A stretch of DNA of 64,000 nt from Astropecten irregularis. Its lineage: Eukaryota; Echinodermata; Asteroidea; Paxillosida; Astropectinidae. Below are positions 6,501 through 60,500 of the stretch, piece after piece (positions within the stretch are counted from its first letter, which is position 1; the number at the start of each line of letters is the position of its first letter). The stretch covers positions 7,163,036-7,227,035 of the forward strand of contig OZ020262.1 of NCBI GenBank assembly GCA_963971285.1. Direction: 5' to 3'. The position numbers were made by a program, and so were the translations under genes. The notes under the pieces are model-generated. The model was not told the origin of the DNA. It did no database searches and saw nothing but the letters and a program-made list of their open reading frames with translations.

Positions 6501-9500
6501 AGGCTTGAAAGGCCCACAATGTCCCTGCAGGATCTTCAAAACATACCAGCCCCTCCAAAGAGATCGAGCAAGGAACAATTTGGGATAAAATTGCACCGGT
6601 CCCCAAACAAGTCTCAACTGTGAAAAGAACATAAAAAAAAACACTGGTAGGCGGACAATGTAATAGGTTGGGTTGGCTGGGCGCTGGGGATGGAATGGTA
6701 AGGCCCCTTGTTGAACAATTGGCCAGCCTCCATACTGCTTGTTAACAGACTGAAAACAACTTAAAGGGGATGGAGGGTTCATTTAAAACAAGCTTCAAGA
6801 CTATTTTTTAGCAGCACGTCTCACTTCTGGGTGGATGCACAACTGCAAAATGGACTTTGCAAACGTTAATCTTAACATCCTTTTTTTCCAATCAACTGAA
6901 TCTAAACGACTTGAATTTAATGTGGTGGAACTGATTTTAGTGATTTACCCTTCGGGCGGCAATCAAATTTGGATTTTATTTCCAGTGACTGACACAAAAG
7001 ACCATTTCATCCTAGCTCGATGGTGGTTTATGAAACGGAGGCTCAGGCTCCATTTCGTGAATCCATCCATTCTAAAATAACGGGTATCAAAATAGAGGCT
7101 TTTGGCTGCGGTTCGGAAGTCGATTCTCTGGTTTGAAAAAGGAAAACAGAGCTTCAGCTTCAATGAAAAACCACAACCTATAGGCTTATTTTCAGCATGG
7201 ATGACAGAGCTGGAGCCGGAGTATTGTAAATCCCCTAGGCCGAAGAAACCGCAGCCTTCCATTTCTTTTACAAGTAGAACATATTACCAAACAACTAATG
7301 TAGCCCACATACATGAATACAACAACAGCCTCTTCAACTGAAGAGTCTATGGACATTAGGTCTGTACAGCTTAACTGACCTAGCACTAAGCTTATTTGCT
7401 TAGCAGCACTCCACCAAGTGCATAGCAAACATAGTTATCACCTGCTCTGTGTGGTTACTGTATTACAAGATGGATGTGTCAACAGTACGCAGAGCAAAGG
7501 CCAAGCAATGCTAGATAAGTGCTACACAAACCAACATCATGTAAAGTGTGGGCAATAGCCAAGATGACATTTTGAGCAATTCGCTTAATTGTCTCAACCG
7601 GAAACTATCAGAAATTTATCAGAATTTTCGTTAGGATCACTTCTTTGACTTGAAAGATGGAAAAGGAATCTATTTAAACCATATTTTTGGTCTTGACAAA
7701 TATATGTACAGTGTAGGAAGTTTTATTGGAACAAGGTACTGTACATGTGGACTTTTTTGGACGGTATTTCCGATACGGCAGATGTTTGAAGCTAAAATTC
7801 TCCAAAAATGTCCTGGGGTTGATTTCCTCCATGATTTCACCAAACTCATCTTAACTTACTATCAATCATAGGACTTGTGATGCATTACAGCCCAACGTAG
7901 GATACAATTGTTTAACCTTCGTAACTCGAAATACGATCATTCGTAGGGCTTTGTGAAATCAATCACAGAATCGATACGGCTAATGGTAACGAGTGATTCA
8001 TATTGTGTGCAAGATGTGTGTCTTTTAAAGGTCATACTTTGGTAAGACACCAAAACAGAAATTTTCACAGATTTACGTATAACTTACAGGGTATGAAAAT
8101 GGTGGTGGTAGAAACATACTGTTGAAATGTTTGTGCCTGAAATGATGTATTTATCCAGAAATTAATACACTGTAAAACAACGACCGAAATACTTTTTGAT
8201 CTTTTAAAAGATAAAAAATAAAAGAGAAAAGACTTAAGAAATACTGTGGGCGTTTAAGCCAGATTAAGATTGGTAGTGGCTTTTGGGGATGGGCACTTAC
8301 AAAGCCTTATATACACCAATGTGAACATCGAAACTGTACCATGACCAAAAAGTCTTGACTTTTCAAATTCTTTCACAAGGTTGAAGTCAGGATTTTTTCT
8401 AGAGCATTCTTTATCCCAAACAAAAACGCATTCAAGTAAAGATGTTCACTGTAAAAAAACAAAACCAATTTCTTGTTAAGCTTCCTGTGTGTCATTATAG
8501 TAAGAATGAAATTGGTAAGGCAGGTTCCTGATGACTGGTTTCGTTGTCGCTATCCGTCACGTCTTTTTATAGATTTTTTGGATGCTGTTTGCTGCCACGA
8601 ACGATTTTGACAATGTCATCATCTTCATTAGGACCGAGTCGGAGTTTCCAGCACGCCTGAATTCAATACAGGAAGCGAAAGCAGCAACGAAACCATTGAA
8701 CTTCCTACAGAATGCAGTTACACTGATTAATGGCGTGCTGTTTTGATCCGAGTAATAAATAGGATTGTACGTCTTTCTTTTTCAACGGAAGGATATTCAT
8801 TCTCAATGACAAGCTGTTGTTTTGGACAAATTGTTAAAAATACAGCAAGGCAATGACCAGGGGCAGCAAGGCAATGACCAGGGGCACTAAGACAATGACT
8901 AGGGGCAGCAAGGCAATGACCAGGGGCAGCAAGGCAATGACCAGGGGCACTAAGACAATGACTAGGGGCAGCAAGGCAATGACCAGGGGCCGCAAGGCAA
9001 TGACCAAGGACACCAAGGCAATGACCAGTAGCACCAAGGCAATGACCAAGGCACCCCAACCCCTTTCAAGTACGGTATAACCTTCTCCCTTTCCTCTTTG
9101 AATTTTGAATCCAGAACACTATTAACAGCAACTAGAGAAAGTTAACTATGAACACAAAATTTAAGTACCATCAGCTACATGTAGATTTCTCTTGTCTAAA
9201 ACTTGTGTAAAGTAAAATCAAATCTACACGTAAGGTGCGCAATGACAATAACTATATCAAGCATTCTATTGCTAAACTTTTTCTCCAGGTTAGTGCTTGA
9301 CATGTCCAGAGAAATGAACTCAACTTCTTGACGTCAACTCTGAACTAGCAGAGTACACACCAACAGTACCTTGACTCCAAAACTAATGGTCAGATCAGTT
9401 GCAAGATATTTCTTATTGTAAAATTAATTCTGATGCTTTATCCATCCCATTCTGAGCCTTAACTGTCAAAATAGAACTTGTGCTCAAAACTTACAGACAC

Positions 9501-24800: not shown

Positions 24801-27800
24801 ACACTGATGAGTCAATAATGAATTTAGAGGAAAAAAAGAGAATACATTTTTCGAGCGAGTGTCATGTAAAAATACAGAAGTTAAAATAGAAAGCCAAATT
24901 CAATTACGATTGAGGCCGACCGGCTCGTATTTGTAGGACCTTGAAAAGTGTCAACGCGCCAGCCGAATTCCAGAGTTTCTTCAGCTGCTGAAATCTTTTC
25001 ATAAAATAACAGCGGTCGCCGGGATTGTGAGCCGGTGGCCCAGGTACAAAAATTTCCCGTCTGTGGCAACAATGCTACTGTAAACTACTTGAATGAGTGT
25101 TTAGGGATGGAAATAGGCCGGAATATTTCAGTATTTAGGTCATGATGACCCTTTCATTCGGGGTAAATTTTCCCGACTGCTTGGATAATCTTTTGTCGGC
25201 GGACTTGGGGTATGAAAATCGTATTTGTGACGGGTGGATTAACTAAGGGTGTGTGACAAGTTATGAGTGGGCATAGGCGGGGTTATTAGCATACGTGTGG
25301 CTTTCGCATTTTAGTTGAGTGTCTGACTTAATCCTAGCCACTGGAATGTTGGATATATTTCTCATTCATGACTATACAGGGAAACTATTTTTTTCTTTCG
25401 TGAATATCAAATTAATTATTTCATTGCTCTTCCACTTGAAAAAAACTGAAGAGGATTGAAACAAAACATGGGTTCTTACTACCCAGAACAAAGATTCATT
25501 GACTGATAGGGAGGTGCTATCATAGAGCTGCTGGATAGCTCAGATGGTAGCTAGAGTGCTGCAGTCGATTTCACGAAACTTTACGCAGTTGCGTAAAGTA
25601 CGCCACTTACGCCACAAATTTGGTGGCGTAAGTGGACTTACGCAACTGCGTAAAGTTTCGTGAAATCGACCACTGGTATGGCATGGGTGACACCACTTCT
25701 GACTGGCACCCTGAGCAAAGATAGTTGACTACACGGATGCCTCATCATAGGGCTGGATAGCTCAGATGGTAGATCACTGATATGGCAGTTAATGGGCACC
25801 CTGAGCAAAGATAGTTGACTAAAGGGAGTCCATCATATGGCTGGATAGCTTCCCCAAAACAGAAGATATTGGTTCAAAAAAAAAGAGTTTTTGCAGCTTA
25901 CAGAATGTTCAATGCTTTACATTTGTTAAATGTAGGAGAGGGAATTTAAACATAAAGCAACAGTCACATTTGTAGGGTGAGATGACTTCAGCCCTGTTAC
26001 CATGGAAACAAGAAAAGAAGATGATATATAGCACCCTCCAAATTTCAAACAGCGCCCTCGTTGGGCGAAGGATATGCCCAGTAACATAAATTCTGGAAGC
26101 ATATGGAAAAAAACTCAAACCCTACTGTGGGAACTACTCACTGCAACTTAACTCCCACACAGGACAATTGGCCCATCCCCAACCCTCACCCTCTTTAACC
26201 ATGGCTGCCTAGTGATGCTTGACTGACCCTGTGGAATGGTACCATGCATAATACAAGGCTATGGATTCATCTCACACCCCTGTCCATTGTGAGAAACCAC
26301 TCAACCATGACCACACACACACACAGAGGGGTCCCATTACTGGTGCCCAGTTAGGGGAATGGAACAGTAGTGCATTATGTACTGGAGTGCTGAGTGCTGC
26401 TACCGACTACCAACATGATCAAGTTTTGACAAGTAGCTTCCCATGTACTAACTGTGCGCTTCTGAATTGGTGGCAAAGTTTCTCAAGTCTCTGTGTTAAA
26501 ACCCATGCGCTTCATCCAATCTACGTACTATAGGCCCAGTAACTGTTATCAAGACTAAGCCCTCCTGCAGCCCGGTTTGTTTTAACCTTCCCAAAGGGCG
26601 CTCTGTGTTATATTCGTGGGATTAATTTCTGCTGGTGATTTCTGACAGTTGTGGAATATCATGACGTGACTATTGTGGAATATATTGTACTTTAATTTCT
26701 CACGGTGGAGTGGTTTGAAGTTGATGGCGTAAGTGGGAACGCATAAGAGAGTGTGTAGTGCCTCGAATTTGATATCAGGTAAGAATTGTCAGTAAATTCA
26801 CCAGCCTAATACCAGTGTGTTGACATGGTCTTGCTTGTTTAAAGATGGGTGCTTTAACTACCAGTGGACAGACACTCTAATTGTGATAACATGTGTCAAC
26901 TTGACAAGTAAGGAAAAGATATTGGCACTTCAAAGTGCCTACCTCTACTATGCTAGAACAACCTCAAATTTTGAAGATTTCCATACACGGTCTACAAAAT
27001 AAACCAGTTTACATTTTTCATTTGACTTAGAATGGACACTTTGAAAGTTTACTTTTACAAATTTAGTTTAACCTGTGAAAACCGAAAAGCGTTTACTTAG
27101 AAAACAAAGGAATTTGATGATGAAATGTGTTATTTTTTTAGTATGGGATTGGTTTTATACTTGACCTACTTTCCTGAAAGAACGTGAATTTTGTCAGTTT
27201 GGGGTAAGATGAGCATCAAAAACAGTTTTGGGGAAAATGTTTGTAACCTGGTGTCATTTCTGTGTTGCCTTAAAAATGTGTTATCTGCGTTGAATTTCAT
27301 TTTCATTCATTCATTTGTTGCTTGCATTAATTTTTCAATTCATAAGTGTTATACAAATGCATAAATTTCATATAATTTTAAAATTGCGGTGGCCTTTTCA
27401 GTTGTGCAGAAAAGCCATTTGCCAACACTGTGCAGGGCAATAACTGGTTGCTATCAAATGATATATTTATAAATTATCAAGTATTGATTTATTGACCAAT
27501 TTTTATTCGTCACTATTTATCAGCTGCTTACTGTATTTGCGGGACGCAAATCAATGTATCATTAAATATATACATGTATCCAGCATCATTTTGGTAAAAA
27601 AAAAACATTTCAATACATTTCATTGGTGTGCGTTTTGCTGTTGGTTTTGAAAAAAAAATCCTGAATTTGCAGAAATGACTAATCTGAGCTGATATTAAAG
27701 GGCATGAACAGGACTGGTAAAAAACCAAAAACAGAAATGTTCACAGATTTATGTTTAACTTATCCAGAAAAGAGTAAAACCAAACACCAAAACATTTTTG

Positions 27801-48500: not shown

Positions 48501-51500
48501 AATGTTCCATAGATTGGGTCAATAGCTTGGGGTCATGAAGTCACTAAGGGTCAACGTACCTCGTCAGTGTCATCAGGGAAGTAGACCTTGTGGAAGATCT
48601 GCGTGGTCTTGTGTTGGATGGCCTCCACCTCCACGAGATGGGGCGGGTACTTGCGCTGGCCGTAGCGGATGGTCTTCTGCAGCCGATGCAGACAGTCGGC
48701 TGCCAGGTTGTTGGTGCCGGACCTGAGGAACTTGGTGACCTCTGGCATCAGGGTCTGACTGCAAGCGAAGATCCCCGTCACCAGCCACATCAACTCCCAA
48801 CCTCGCTCCTCACTCAACCTATAAACCAGACAAGCCCCAAATAATACAACACCACTGGCTTTTCTAGACAAAGATTTTGGTACCTAAGGCACTAAAAATC
48901 AATCTGCTCGAGGTGGAAGAATCAGAATGCCCCTAGAGTGCCAAATGCTACAACTTTTGTAAGACAATGAAATGGCTTCCTACTTTTTGATGTCTCTTTC
49001 ATCCTTCAAAAAAAAAAAGTAAACTAGTAATTTATTTCTTCAATGCTTGGAGTTGGGAGGGCCTGACGTTTCGATCCCAGCAGGATCTTTCTCAAAGCCA
49101 AAATGACGAGAGGACAATAATGTGCAAGTATGACGATGCACATAAATGGATGAGAGGATCAGGACAAAGGGGGACAGAGTGACCAGGGAAACATGAAAAG
49201 CACGTATTTCTTCCTCTAAATCTCTGGAAAAGCACTCTGAAATCCACCTACTTGAGTCTGTTATCGGTGAGCTGCTTGATGACCTGGCAATATATCTCAT
49301 CCTTGAGCGGTTCGTTCTTCAACGGCGACTCGAAGATCTTGTCCGTGAGGTCGTTGCCGTGACGGTAGGACCTCTTGGTCGGGAAGTCGCCCATGTACTT
49401 CAGGATAGGTACAGAGTGGTCAAGGAATTTTCATGGAGGATGTTGGAGGTGGGTAGAATTGTAAGTCACATGGAGTGACGAACACATCAAATCCAACCTT
49501 TGTTGGGGCACTTGATGTGTTAGGTACACCAAGGAAAGTGCGGCACCATGGGCACCAAGGCAATGACCAGGGGCACCGTAGTCATTTGTCTAAAATATCT
49601 ATGTTTCATCAAACAAAACAAAACTTTGAAAGGAAGGAAACTTGGTCTGAAATTTTGTCGGGAAAAGGTTAATTTTTTTAAACTGCAGAATTGCAAAGGA
49701 TATCTTCGAAGGCATCGCAGGCTTGCTGTGCTAGCTCAGGGTTGTTGAGAAGCTTCTTGAGCAGAGGCTGACGAATCTGTTCCTTGGTGTGGCTCCACAG
49801 GTTATCCTGAAAAAGGATGAGAGTTAAAAGAAGGGGGCTTAGCGATGGCTTCTTGGTCGTGGTAAAGAAGACAGTGATGAAGGGAGTTAGAGTGATTCAT
49901 GGACGCTTACCCTGGTGCGGCGTTTGACGGCTCGGCTGAGGGTGCGCTTGGGAGGCGGTCTGAAGTGATCGATGGCAAACTCCTCCAGAGTGTGCTGGTG
50001 CTGATGCGGCTCGCCGTTCTTCATGGCCTCCTCGTGAGAAGCCAACATCCTGTCGGACATCTCCTGGGGTTGCATGGTGAACAGAGCCTGGAAGGTTGGG
50101 GAGGGAAAGAGGAGAGGAACAACATGGTCAATAAGACAGCTTAGGATTACATCTGAGAGGAACAGGGGAGAAGGCCTTGGTAAGAGTCTTGAGGTCGATC
50201 GGTCGGGGTATACTCACCACGATCTCCGCTGCTGGCTTGGTGGTTGTGGGAAGGACGTAGACACACTCGGTGGGGAAGTCCCCTTTGCGGCCGGTCCGGT
50301 CGTTCTCACCATAGCACCAGCCACTCTCCATCAGTGCGTCCCCATTCTCCTGCTCCAAGATGATCAGGTCCCCCCGCTGGAAGCTGAGGAAGGACGACCC
50401 TTGACCTGAAGGATAAAGGTTTCAAGTTTCAAGTCACAATCCCGTCCAGGTAAAGGAATACAATAGGCATTTGCTGAGTAAATCCTGCTAACCTTAAAGT
50501 GTTTCCAACCTCAACTCCTATTCTGCAAGGTTTTTTGAGCTAAAATCTCTGAGAATCTAACAAGATCTCTTTTATCTTTGAAACTGGCAAAGACCTTCAA
50601 CTCGGAAAATTGTTAAAAGGCCCTACAAAGGATCATCAAGTTCCGTGGGCACTACCCAGGGATTCTTTGGGAAGTCATGGCATCTAGCGCAGAGCTCGAC
50701 AAATTTATAAAATAACTGGTAGCCCACCGGACTACCACACCTTGAAATCTGGTAGCCCAGTGCTTTAAACTGGTAGTCCTACCATCCAACCATTTAAAAC
50801 AAAAAAAATGTAAAACAAATTCTTAGTTTGATCATATTCCTTATCATGATTTTTTTTTCTTCTTGTCAGATGGGGCACTAGGCCTACCACACACAAAAAA
50901 AGTTTCAAAAATTAGCGGTTGCCCGAGCTCCGATTTATAAAAATGAATGATAGCGCTATATTGCGCACGTGTTGATAATGTGCACGATCAATGGATGCAT
51001 AGCGATGTAGGAGTGTGTAAAACATGCTACAACGATCGTTGCGCCGACGTATACAATCAGTTTCTGGTCTCGATCTTCGTGCGTGTTTGGGAATCTTGCG
51101 ATGATTTGGTGCCGGCAACCTTACAGAATATTCAGTCAGAATCGTTCATAACTTGCTCAGCGCGATATGTCACATTTATTACCGAAAAAACCTGCATTGA
51201 AGCAGGCCGAAATCCACGGACCACGGTACCGAGCGCGACTTGATTGCATGCACCAAATACACACATTGTACGTGCGACATGTAGGCTTCCACTTCCGGCC
51301 CGATTGCGAATTGGCGACTGTGTACAGGTGCATAACGTATGCTTTGAATGGTGCGGCGCGGATAGACATCGTGGAATTTTCTGGATGCAATTCTGCTGCT
51401 GCATGGACCGGGCCAACACGGCCACGTGGTGTGCATGCGGTGTGCAGGATGCATCGTACGCGATATGTTTACGTATTCTTTCGAGCGATCGTCCTTTCGG

Positions 51501-57500: not shown

Positions 57501-60500
57501 GATAACCAGATCCTGCCTTGATGTAAGGACAGAGACTCCAAGGAGAGTGAAGTTCCTAGCCTTTTGGAGACTTGACAGAAAGGGAGGAAGAAGGTACTGA
57601 GGAAAAAAGCTTGTGCCTGGCTAAATTTGGTTCCTACGAGATTAACTTGTCAAGGATAGCTTTCAAATTGCCTTGTTCAAGATAGAAGAGGTTTGTCTTT
57701 CCAAGACTCAAAGACCTCCTAAAAAAACATGGTATCAATACTTCAGACACTTCCAACTCTAGAAACATCCGAAATCTTGTTTTCCTGTAAAGAAACAGTT
57801 TCATGGAGGCTGACCTTGAGAAAGACCTTCTGGTGGCCCATCTGCCAGTCCTGGTTGCCCAGGTGAGCCTGACAGATCTTGGTGGAGGCTGCTTTGCAGT
57901 TCTCTTTGTGGGACGGCTGGATGCCATTGACCAGCATCCGGTATCGGTCGATGAACTCCTTGAAGGTGTGGCGGATCGGGTAGCCGGCTCGTCGGATCCT
58001 GGACATCGAAGTCAAATAATCATCAATAATTTAGCATAAAGGTAAAATTCATAAGATTTTGATGACAGATTCTGATAAAAAGTAAGACTTGGGCAAAATT
58101 TGTGAAATAAGTTTGAGAGGGTTATCTCTAAGTGACGAAAGAACCGGAGACTTACCTAATGGTTTCCATCATCCCGGAGTATCGCAGCTGCCTCACGACC
58201 AATTCCCGCTCAAACTCCTTTTGAAACAAAGAGAAGGCCAATCCCAAATAAAGTTACATTTTGGAAGACTTGAATTCATTTTCATTTTTGGGCGGATAGA
58301 GAAAGTGGGAGGAGATAGCAACTTTTATCAATTTGTTGCCACCGTGAAAACTTGACAAGAACCTCATTTCTGAATGGTGGACTTTTGGACTCTCGGTGCT
58401 AATTTATGACGTATGAAAGAGGGAACAGAACAAGTAAATCACTGTATTTACCAAAGTAAGTCCCAGCATGCTTCACAATACTATCCATAGACATCTGGGC
58501 AAACGATATCACTCTAAGACCTTCTGAACTAATAGAGTACACAGCCTCAGATTCTTTGACCAAATTCCAGACTTTAAGTCTGCTACTTTTGTGTTGAATC
58601 CCTTGCCAATTCAAAAACAGTGATGGAGTATGAGCTTGGGATTATTGATAATGATTGATAGGTAGGCTATCGTGAAGGATTCCCAAACATGCAGACAAAT
58701 GTCAATGGGAATGTGCCCGCGAGACTGTCATCATCGGTCAAGCTTACCCGCGGTCTCTTGTGCTCGTTGGGCTTGATGCAGCGCACAAAGAACGGCTGGC
58801 ACTGGCTGAGAGTGTGCATCAGGGCGTCCAGGGACTTCTTGAACTGGGTGCCCAGAGTCGGCGACTTCTTGCGAGTGTCGCCGCTGAGCTTGATGTCCGT
58901 CTCGAAGAGGCGCCGCAGGAACTTGTTGCCGGCCGTGTCGATGAGCTTCACGAAGTCAGGGCTGAAGGTGTCTCTGTTTTTGTCCAGAAATCCTGACGGA
59001 TGAAAGATGAAACAAGGTTGGAGCTTTAAGGATGAAACTTGTAGGGTTTGTTTGAGATCAAGCTAGAAGCTACTCTCAAGGTAGGACTCCTGGGGATGCA
59101 TGTGAGTCCCACCGACCAGGAATCTAGTGTCTTACCTATTGCCTCATAGTACACGGTGCCCGCAAAGTGGTTGATTCCAAACCGGGTGCTGTGGGCTCCC
59201 GCGGATCGGACGAAGAGAGGGTTGCGTCCATGCTGCCCGTTCAGCTTATCCAACATGGTCTTATCCGTGCCCTAAAGATAACACAAATCAATAGTTGATG
59301 TCACACTCACTTTATCTTGCAAACAAGTATCACAGTACAAAATGAGACATGCATCTGATTGTATGACCTTTGACCTCGTATGCATACACACGTGACCTCT
59401 GACACTGACCTTAGGAAAGCGGCTCTCTTCGTCCACCAGGGCGATGATGTTCATGGGCTTGGCAGCGATCATATCCAGGGTCTCCTGGTTGTCAACGAAC
59501 TTGATGTGCTGCCACTTGATGCCCTCTCGGTCATACTCTTCCTGTGAGGGTCAAAGGTCAAGGAAAGGTCAAGGAAAGTTCAAGGAAAGGTCAATAAGCT
59601 GTCTGCTAATCTGCAGAAGATCATGGACCTTGGTTGCGGTTTGCTCAGCTCAGCTCGGCAATGAAAAAATTGTTTTTACCTGTTCCAGCTTGAATATGTG
59701 TCTCACAAAGAACTGTTGGAGATTCTCGTTGGCATAGTTGATGCACATCTGTTCAAAACTGGAAAGAAACCAAAAAAGTAGCGAAGTTATAAAATCTGAT
59801 TTGAGAAATTGAATGGCCATAAGAGTTTATGATTTTGGAGTCAGAAAGAATATTTCAATAAAATGGAATCCCAGATGGAGACTTTAAGTGTACTCTGCCA
59901 AAGCTCTACCATCAGAGCTATCCAGTGTTGTCAGTGAATACCTACTGTCAATTATCTCAATAACTAGGTGGTAGTCAAAAGCCTTAACCCATTAACTGCC
60001 ATGAAGTGAGGGATCTCATCCAATCAGATATACATTCGAGAACTTAAAACCATTTACAGTAACTTAGAGAGCACTTAGTAGGATGTAATTGCTGAATGTC
60101 ACAAAGTCAGACTTATAGAAGCTCTGCATATCCTGGGACTCTCTTACCTGTTCTTTCCGAAGTTTTCAAATCCAAAGATGTCGAGGAGGCCGATGCTGAG
60201 TCGATTGTCATTGCGGTCCTCTTGGGGTCTGAAGGTGGCCTCGTTGAGCTTGGTGACGATCCAGATGAACATGCGGCCGTAGATGGCCTTGACCAGGGCA
60301 TCCCGCATGTCGGTGGCCTTGTGTCGACTGACCGGGGAGATGATGACCTCTCCTTGGGCCGTGGTGGACTTGGTGGTCAGGGCTTCTTCCAGGGCACGCT
60401 GGTTTATCTACAAAAAGATAAATCAAATGAGCACACAATGAGCAATGAGATAATGTAATGCAGGAAGTCTTTGCTTGTGGTTCTGCAAAGAACTAAAGGT

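What the first reader, a model, noticed from the sequence alone, without database searches (positions are those of the whole stretch)
49409..49703. U12-type AT-AC intron inside the second MyTH4 domain of myosin VII
The exon 33 donor reads G|ATATCCTTT, the consensus minor-spliceosome AT donor. The intron ends TTCCTTGACCACTCTGTAC|, giving a branch site matching the TTCCTTRAC consensus 11 bases from an AC terminus. Only this splice gives the conserved [13 protein letters not shown]. All other introns in the three genes look GT-AG. I cannot check whether this minor intron is conserved in other myosin VII genes.
Basis: partly seen in the sequence, partly recalled or inferred. Interest (0 to 1): 0.72.

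Follow-up and report, generated by a model that had tools for sequence, protein, structure and literature searches.

The report
AT-AC minor intron in myosin VII
A gene for the cell motor myosin VII carries one rare intron of the kind removed by the cell's second, minor splicing machine, and a second myosin VII gene in the same genome has the same rare intron at the same spot; it is a well-made example of a known kind of intron.

Summary
On the minus strand, 49703-49409 (295 nt, phase 1) reads GAAG|ATATCCTTT...TTCCTTGACCACTCTGTAC|CTATCC. Splicing it out gives DAFEAILKYMGD, which aligns without a gap at the junction to a solved myosin VIIa tail. With AT-AC forbidden, the best spliced alignment loses 31 points and alters the peptide. 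Donor and branch site match the consensus 9 of 9; the branch A lies 11 nt from the end.

New evidence: a diverged second myosin VII gene on another contig (54.2% identical over 365 positions) has an AT-AC intron at the same residue and phase. The genome encodes U11, U12, U4atac and U6atac, which can pair with these sites, and has matches to CENATAC/CCDC84. In both genes retention brings an in-frame stop within ten codons.

So it is a U12-type AT-AC intron, most simply older than this duplication: a new member of a known kind. No RNA evidence and no other species could be examined; the class of the human MYO7A counterpart stays open.

The parts
49409..49703 (-). U12-type AT-AC intron, 295 nt, phase 1, in the myosin VII tail (second MyTH4)
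49695..49703 (-). 5' splice site ATATCCTTT (9 of 9 to the recalled U12 AT-AC consensus)
49419..49427 (-). branch site TTCCTTGAC, branch A at 49420, 11 nt from the intron end
49409..49410 (-). terminal AC (3' splice site)
49704..49806 (-). upstream coding exon [10 protein letters not shown]...QACDAFE plus the first base of the next codon
49252..49408 (-). downstream coding exon (A)[12 protein letters not shown]...TDNRL, followed by a GT donor
49678..49703 (-). codons read if the intron is retained: DILCNSAV and then an in-frame TAA
   Evidence: (ORF 49678-49896)

Best explanation
This is a genuine U12-type AT-AC intron in the tail of a myosin VII gene. Shown from sequence: perfect minor-class donor and branch site, AC end, correct frame, the same class of intron at the same residue and phase in a second myosin VII gene, and the four minor-class snRNAs in the genome. 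Inferred from established knowledge of the minor spliceosome: the U11/U12 di-snRNP binds donor and branch site together, U6atac replaces U11, and the intron is removed, probably with CENATAC help as for other AT-AN introns. Also inferred: because minor introns are spliced slowly and both copies hit an early stop if retained, splicing of this intron is a necessary and possibly limiting step for making full-length myosin VII with its second MyTH4-FERM cargo-binding unit.
For: Boundaries and frame. Contiguous match across the junction to 5mv9_A, myosin VIIa (E 1.3e-32; 365 residues of tail E 8e-175). The spliced aligner prefers AT-AC although it was charged more than GT-AG: 1264 against 1233 here and 789 against 741 in the paralogue when AT-AC is forbidden. 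Branch score 9 of 9 here against 5 or 6 of 9 in the five other introns of this tail; paralogue 8 of 9 with the branch A 10 nt from its end. Paralogue AAAG|ATATCCTTTT...TGCCTTAACTGGTCACAC|CAATCC. U12 132.2 bits, U6atac 139.2, U11 100.7, U4atac 87.4, all over the gathering score, one hit each (the tool says that such counts are lower bounds; loci rescanned). Predicted pairing of own snRNAs with the window and paralogue sites: U11 to donor -7.6 and -8.4, U6atac to donor -6.5 and -8.4, U12 to branch -7.3 and -7.2 kcal/mol, against -4.6, -3.9 and -4.6 for one made-up U2-type control each. CCDC84/CENATAC family: five matches on one contig, all over the cut-off.
Against: No RNA evidence, and no second species was available. 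The donor motif by itself is as common as chance. The spliced aligner also chose a second AT-AC intron in the paralogue (17473336-17472342) that I reject as an artefact: its branch score is 5 of 9, and a GT-AG intron fits there at a position shared with the window gene; so the aligner's choice alone is weak evidence. One GT-AG intron of the paralogue reaches 7 of 9 for the branch motif at 24 nt, so branch score alone does not separate classes cleanly. Pyrimidine content before the 3' end does not set this intron apart (0.59 against 0.50 to 0.86 in five others). Pairing energies rest on one control sequence each.
Confidence: 0.95

Rival explanations
1. The site is an AT-AC intron removed by the major (U2) spliceosome.
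For: Such introns exist: passages of PMC8280824 mention 85 major AT-AC introns and related subtypes in human cells.
Against: Donor and branch match the U12 consensus 9 of 9 each, and the paralogue's branch 8 of 9; own U11, U6atac and U12 are predicted to pair better with these sites than with the one U2-type control each.
Confidence: 0.03
2. A GT-AG or GC-AG splice removes this stretch instead (or in competition, as in a twintron) and gives a slightly different peptide.
For: One in-frame GT-AG pair (49684/49397) and four in-frame GC-AG pairs exist in the enumeration. Depletion of CENATAC is reported to activate alternative major splice sites at A-type minor introns (PMC8280824, passage).
Against: These pairs replace AILK by other residues or delete residues. 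With AT-AC forbidden the score falls by 31 (GC-AG allowed) or 33 (GT-AG only) here and by 48 or 52 in the paralogue. The acceptor they use sits inside the conserved codons. In the paralogue the GT-AG/GC-AG solutions need an extra, different exon.
Confidence: 0.02
3. The interval is not spliced, or the locus is a pseudogene.
For: None beyond the lack of RNA data.
Against: Retention brings an in-frame stop after DILCNSAV; the tail is otherwise open and matches myosin VIIa over 365 residues and on to within a few residues of the C-terminus.
Confidence: 0.01

Closest known systems
U12-type AT-AC (A-type) minor introns
   Same: ATATCCTTT donor, TTCCTTRAC branch, AC end, short branch-to-end distance, phase 1; one minor intron found among major ones in the stretch of gene examined
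   Different: Nothing in mechanism. Myosin VII was not named in the main text of the minor-intron papers in which I searched for myosin terms (PMC6558932, PMC2831892, PMC7367187, PMC6717393, PMC2846911, PMC10639083, PMC8280824; listing); gene lists in supplements could not be opened
Minor intron of Myo10
   Same: A MyTH4-FERM myosin gene with a minor intron; increased retention reported in SMA mice (PMC6558932, passage)
   Different: Different myosin class; the place of the Myo10 minor intron was not found, so no statement on homology
Paralogous myosin VII gene on contig C1 of the same genome
   Same: AT-AC, phase 1, same residue (template residue 64), in-frame stop on retention
   Different: 669 nt instead of 295; one branch mismatch; contains a tRNA-like element

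Membership tests
U12-type AT-AC intron | 5' splice site matching ATATCCTTT (consensus recalled) | tested here: met
   9 of 9; paralogue also ATATCCTTT
U12-type AT-AC intron | Branch site matching TTCCTTRAC (consensus recalled) close to the 3' end | tested here: met
   9 of 9, branch A 11 nt from the end; paralogue 8 of 9 at 10 nt
U12-type AT-AC intron | AC at the 3' end giving an open, conserved reading frame | tested here: met
U12-type AT-AC intron | Organism possesses the minor-class snRNAs | tested here: met
   U11, U12, U4atac, U6atac, one hit each over the gathering score
U12-type AT-AC intron | Intron class kept at the same position in related genes | tested here: met
   met in the one myosin VII paralogue found; other species not available
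U12-type AT-AC intron | Excision depends on U12/U6atac in cells | not testable with these tools
   needs RNA work
Myosin VII, second MyTH4-FERM | Protein match over the tail | tested here: met
   5mv9_A E 8e-175 over 365 residues; 70.3% identical over 364 aligned positions

The most novel reading that the evidence does not exclude
The myosin VII gene of early chordates, perhaps of early animals, already had this AT-AC minor intron, and vertebrate MYO7A keeps an intron at exactly this codon but has turned it into a major-class intron; meanwhile in this animal both myosin VII genes are gated by the minor spliceosome, since retention truncates the protein before its second cargo-binding unit. The interrupted alanine is residue 88 of 5mv9_A (counted); if that chain ends at the natural end of the 2215-residue human protein (recalled), it is residue 1776, so the intron would fall at c.5326/5327, where I recall, without support from any call, that human splice variants are numbered.
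Probability: 0.3. Interest if true: 0.45.

Novelty: new member of a known kind. Interest (0 to 1): 0.3.

Why it matters
It adds a clear AT-AC minor intron, present in both copies after a gene duplication, in a gene class whose human member causes Usher syndrome 1B (established knowledge). It gives gene-model builders a concrete exon pair that GT-AG-only prediction would get wrong in both copies, and it offers a direct case for testing class conversion (U12 to U2) between this lineage and vertebrates.

Tried and rejected
Human exon boundary: five literature searches for MYO7A variants numbered c.5326+ or c.5327- gave nothing of use. One search was badly posed (word starts); two searches listed only 30 of 106 and 30 of 104 papers, and searches found 1 unrelated paper and none. 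Two hits that I opened were chance digits. The claim stays recalled.

Literature on myosin VII or lancelet minor introns: the listings (20 of 316 papers; 20 of 409; 20 of 437; 25 of 254) showed no paper whose title or abstract opening names a myosin VII minor intron. I saw listings and passages only, and supplements could not be opened. The Ciona paper PMC2760879 counts 40 AT-AC introns, but its myosin passages concern other genes. The U12DB paper is not held.

Other ATATCCTTT in the window (40183, plus strand): no coding exon recognised there (all three frames hold stops in the 200 nt around it), and the candidate branch sites lie 2.9 and 3.7 kb away; I take it for chance. The RTATCCTT at 26075 (minus) has no branch candidate within 5 kb, that at 8796 (minus) has one at 4.8 kb with one mismatch and spacing 19; their coding context was not checked. 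TTCCTTGAC at 59544-59576 is a short tandem repeat.

A second AT-AC intron proposed by my aligner in the paralogue was rejected. The intron at 48001-47858 starts GTATCC, but its best branch score is 6 of 9, and the paralogue's counterpart starts GTATGT; treated as major class. The donor of the first intron (49904) is weak, and a GGTAAG donor lies a few bases upstream, so that boundary is uncertain. In the run with GT-AG only, my traceback failed for the window gene; only its score (1231) is usable.

Homologous position in other MyTH4 domains: L013 reads through it without an intron, as does the first MyTH4 of this gene (L017, weak match); in L016 and L011 a weak match covers or begins at it. 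L012, L014 and L015 gave no usable alignment there.

Age of the duplication: a five-sequence tree joins the two genes of this genome with support 81, but the paralogue has a long branch and the outgroup is remote, so I claim only that the duplication is not recent.

Full report
What was claimed and what is there. The gene lies on the minus strand. The sequence reads GCCTTCGAAG|ATATCCTTTGCA ... AAATTCCTTGACCACTCTGTAC|CTATCCTGAAG. Removing 295 nt in phase 1 gives [27 protein letters not shown] listed donor/acceptor pairs near the two sites (GT-AG, GC-AG, AT-AC, AT-AG) that keep both flanking exons in frame without a stop: 13 were printed, and only 49704/49408 gives the conserved peptide.

Protein evidence for the junction. 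The spliced 88 residues match myosin VIIa of PDB entry 5mv9 at E 1.3e-32 with no gap at the junction, and 365 residues of the tail match at E 8e-175. A spliced aligner that I wrote, which charges AT-AC more than GT-AG, chose AT-AC here; forbidding AT-AC lowered the score from 1264 to 1233 and forced a GC donor and the peptide DILCNS in place of AILK; with GT-AG alone the score was 1231. The five other introns of this stretch all came out GT-AG, with best branch matches of 5 or 6 of 9 against 9 of 9 here. Four more introns downstream are GT-AG as read by eye.

Chance. The donor motif alone is at chance level in the window: 4 RTATCCTT against 4.1 expected, and ATATCCTTT with up to one mismatch is, if anything, rarer than expected (16 against 22.9). 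The joint occurrence of a 9 of 9 donor at the exon edge and a 9 of 9 branch site within 17 places before an end has a probability of about 8e-6 times 1.9e-4 from base composition.

The paralogue. A Pfam MyTH4 search of the same genome (14 matches) led to a second myosin VII gene on contig C1. Its second MyTH4 reads TGCTTTCAAAG|ATATCCTTTTAAA ... GTCTGCCTTAACTGGTCACAC|CAATCCTGAAG. The aligner placed an AT-AC intron at the same template residue (64) and phase (1), 669 nt long, branch score 8 of 9 and branch A 10 nt from the end; without AT-AC the score fell from 789 to 741. The two tails are 54.2% identical over 365 aligned positions; the window gene is 70.3% identical to the 5mv9 chain and the paralogue 48.6%, each over 364 positions. 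So the intron has most simply persisted in both copies through long divergence. Of six introns in the window tail, five have a counterpart in the paralogue at the same or the neighbouring residue and in the same phase (one of these five only in the run without AT-AC). The aligner's default run gave the paralogue a second AT-AC intron, which I reject because a GT-AG intron fits at the position shared with the window gene and the branch score is only 5 of 9. One GT-AG intron of the paralogue has a branch score of 7 of 9, so the score is not a clean divider by itself.

The machinery. The genome holds one match each, over the curated score, to U12 (132.2 bits), U6atac (139.2), U4atac (87.4) and U11 (100.7); the tool calls such counts lower bounds. 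A scan of the fetched loci agrees. Its U11 begins AAAAAGGG, its U6atac contains AAAGGAGAGAAGG and its U12 contains GUAAGGAA; these are predicted to pair with the donor and branch sites of both introns more stably than with one made-up major-class control each. CCDC84/CENATAC, reported to promote AT-AN minor introns (PMC8280824, abstract and passages), has five family matches on one contig. Pyrimidine content before the 3' end did not set this intron apart from its neighbours (0.59 against 0.50 to 0.86).

How it most likely works. Shown: sequence signals, frame, snRNA genes, the same intron in the paralogue. Inferred from the established minor-spliceosome pathway: U11/U12 recognises both sites, U6atac takes over the donor, and the exons are joined. 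If retained, the reading frame runs [12 protein letters not shown] in the window gene and DILLNPYH-stop in the paralogue (read), removing the second MyTH4-FERM unit. A regulatory role for slow splicing is an inference; A-type minor introns are reported to have relatively high basal retention (PMC8280824, abstract).

What is known. U12-type AT-AC introns are a well-described class; [quoted passage not shown] Myo10, another MyTH4-FERM myosin, is a known minor-intron gene in mouse (PMC6558932, passage). I found no paper that names a myosin VII minor intron (listings), but those listings were partial and gene lists in supplements were out of reach, so I do not claim that it is unreported.

Open question. 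The interrupted alanine is residue 88 of 5mv9_A (counted), a chain of 527 residues whose last four lie beyond the match. With recalled human numbering this is residue 1776, c.5326/5327 in phase 1. I recall human splice variants numbered from c.5327, which would mean that human MYO7A has an intron at the same codon, but five searches found no support. If so, and if it is GT-AG with major-class sites, this would be a clean case of class conversion.

Verdict. Observation and interpretation are right; the intron is a well-formed new member of a known kind. Its presence in both copies of a duplicated gene is the main added value. Interest is moderate to low.

Noticed in passing
L010 2751-2828 (contig C1 paralogue, inside its AT-AC intron): A tRNA-like element scores 39.3 bits with the Rfam tRNA model and is seen by ARAGORN without a clear anticodon; near-identical stretches of about 40 bases lie on either side of it at about 2955 and 2695. 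Probably a tRNA-derived short interspersed repeat that landed in the minor intron.
   Followed up: partly
window 48001-47858, minus strand: Neighbouring GT-AG intron starts GTATCC like a U12 GT donor but lacks a good branch match (6 of 9); could be a decayed or converted minor intron.
   Followed up: partly
window 59544-59576, minus strand: Short tandem repeat holding TTCCTTGAC, which mimics the U12 branch motif.
   Followed up: no
window about 46140-46080, minus strand: A stretch with tRNA promoter-like boxes (GTTGGTAGAGCACCGG ... GGTTCGAATT) inside an intron of the myosin VII gene, read by eye; not scanned for tRNAs.
   Followed up: no
window 49471-49490 and 49512-49531: An imperfect inverted repeat (20-nt arms, 80% complementary, 21 nt apart) inside the minor intron; meaning unknown, may be chance.
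   Followed up: no
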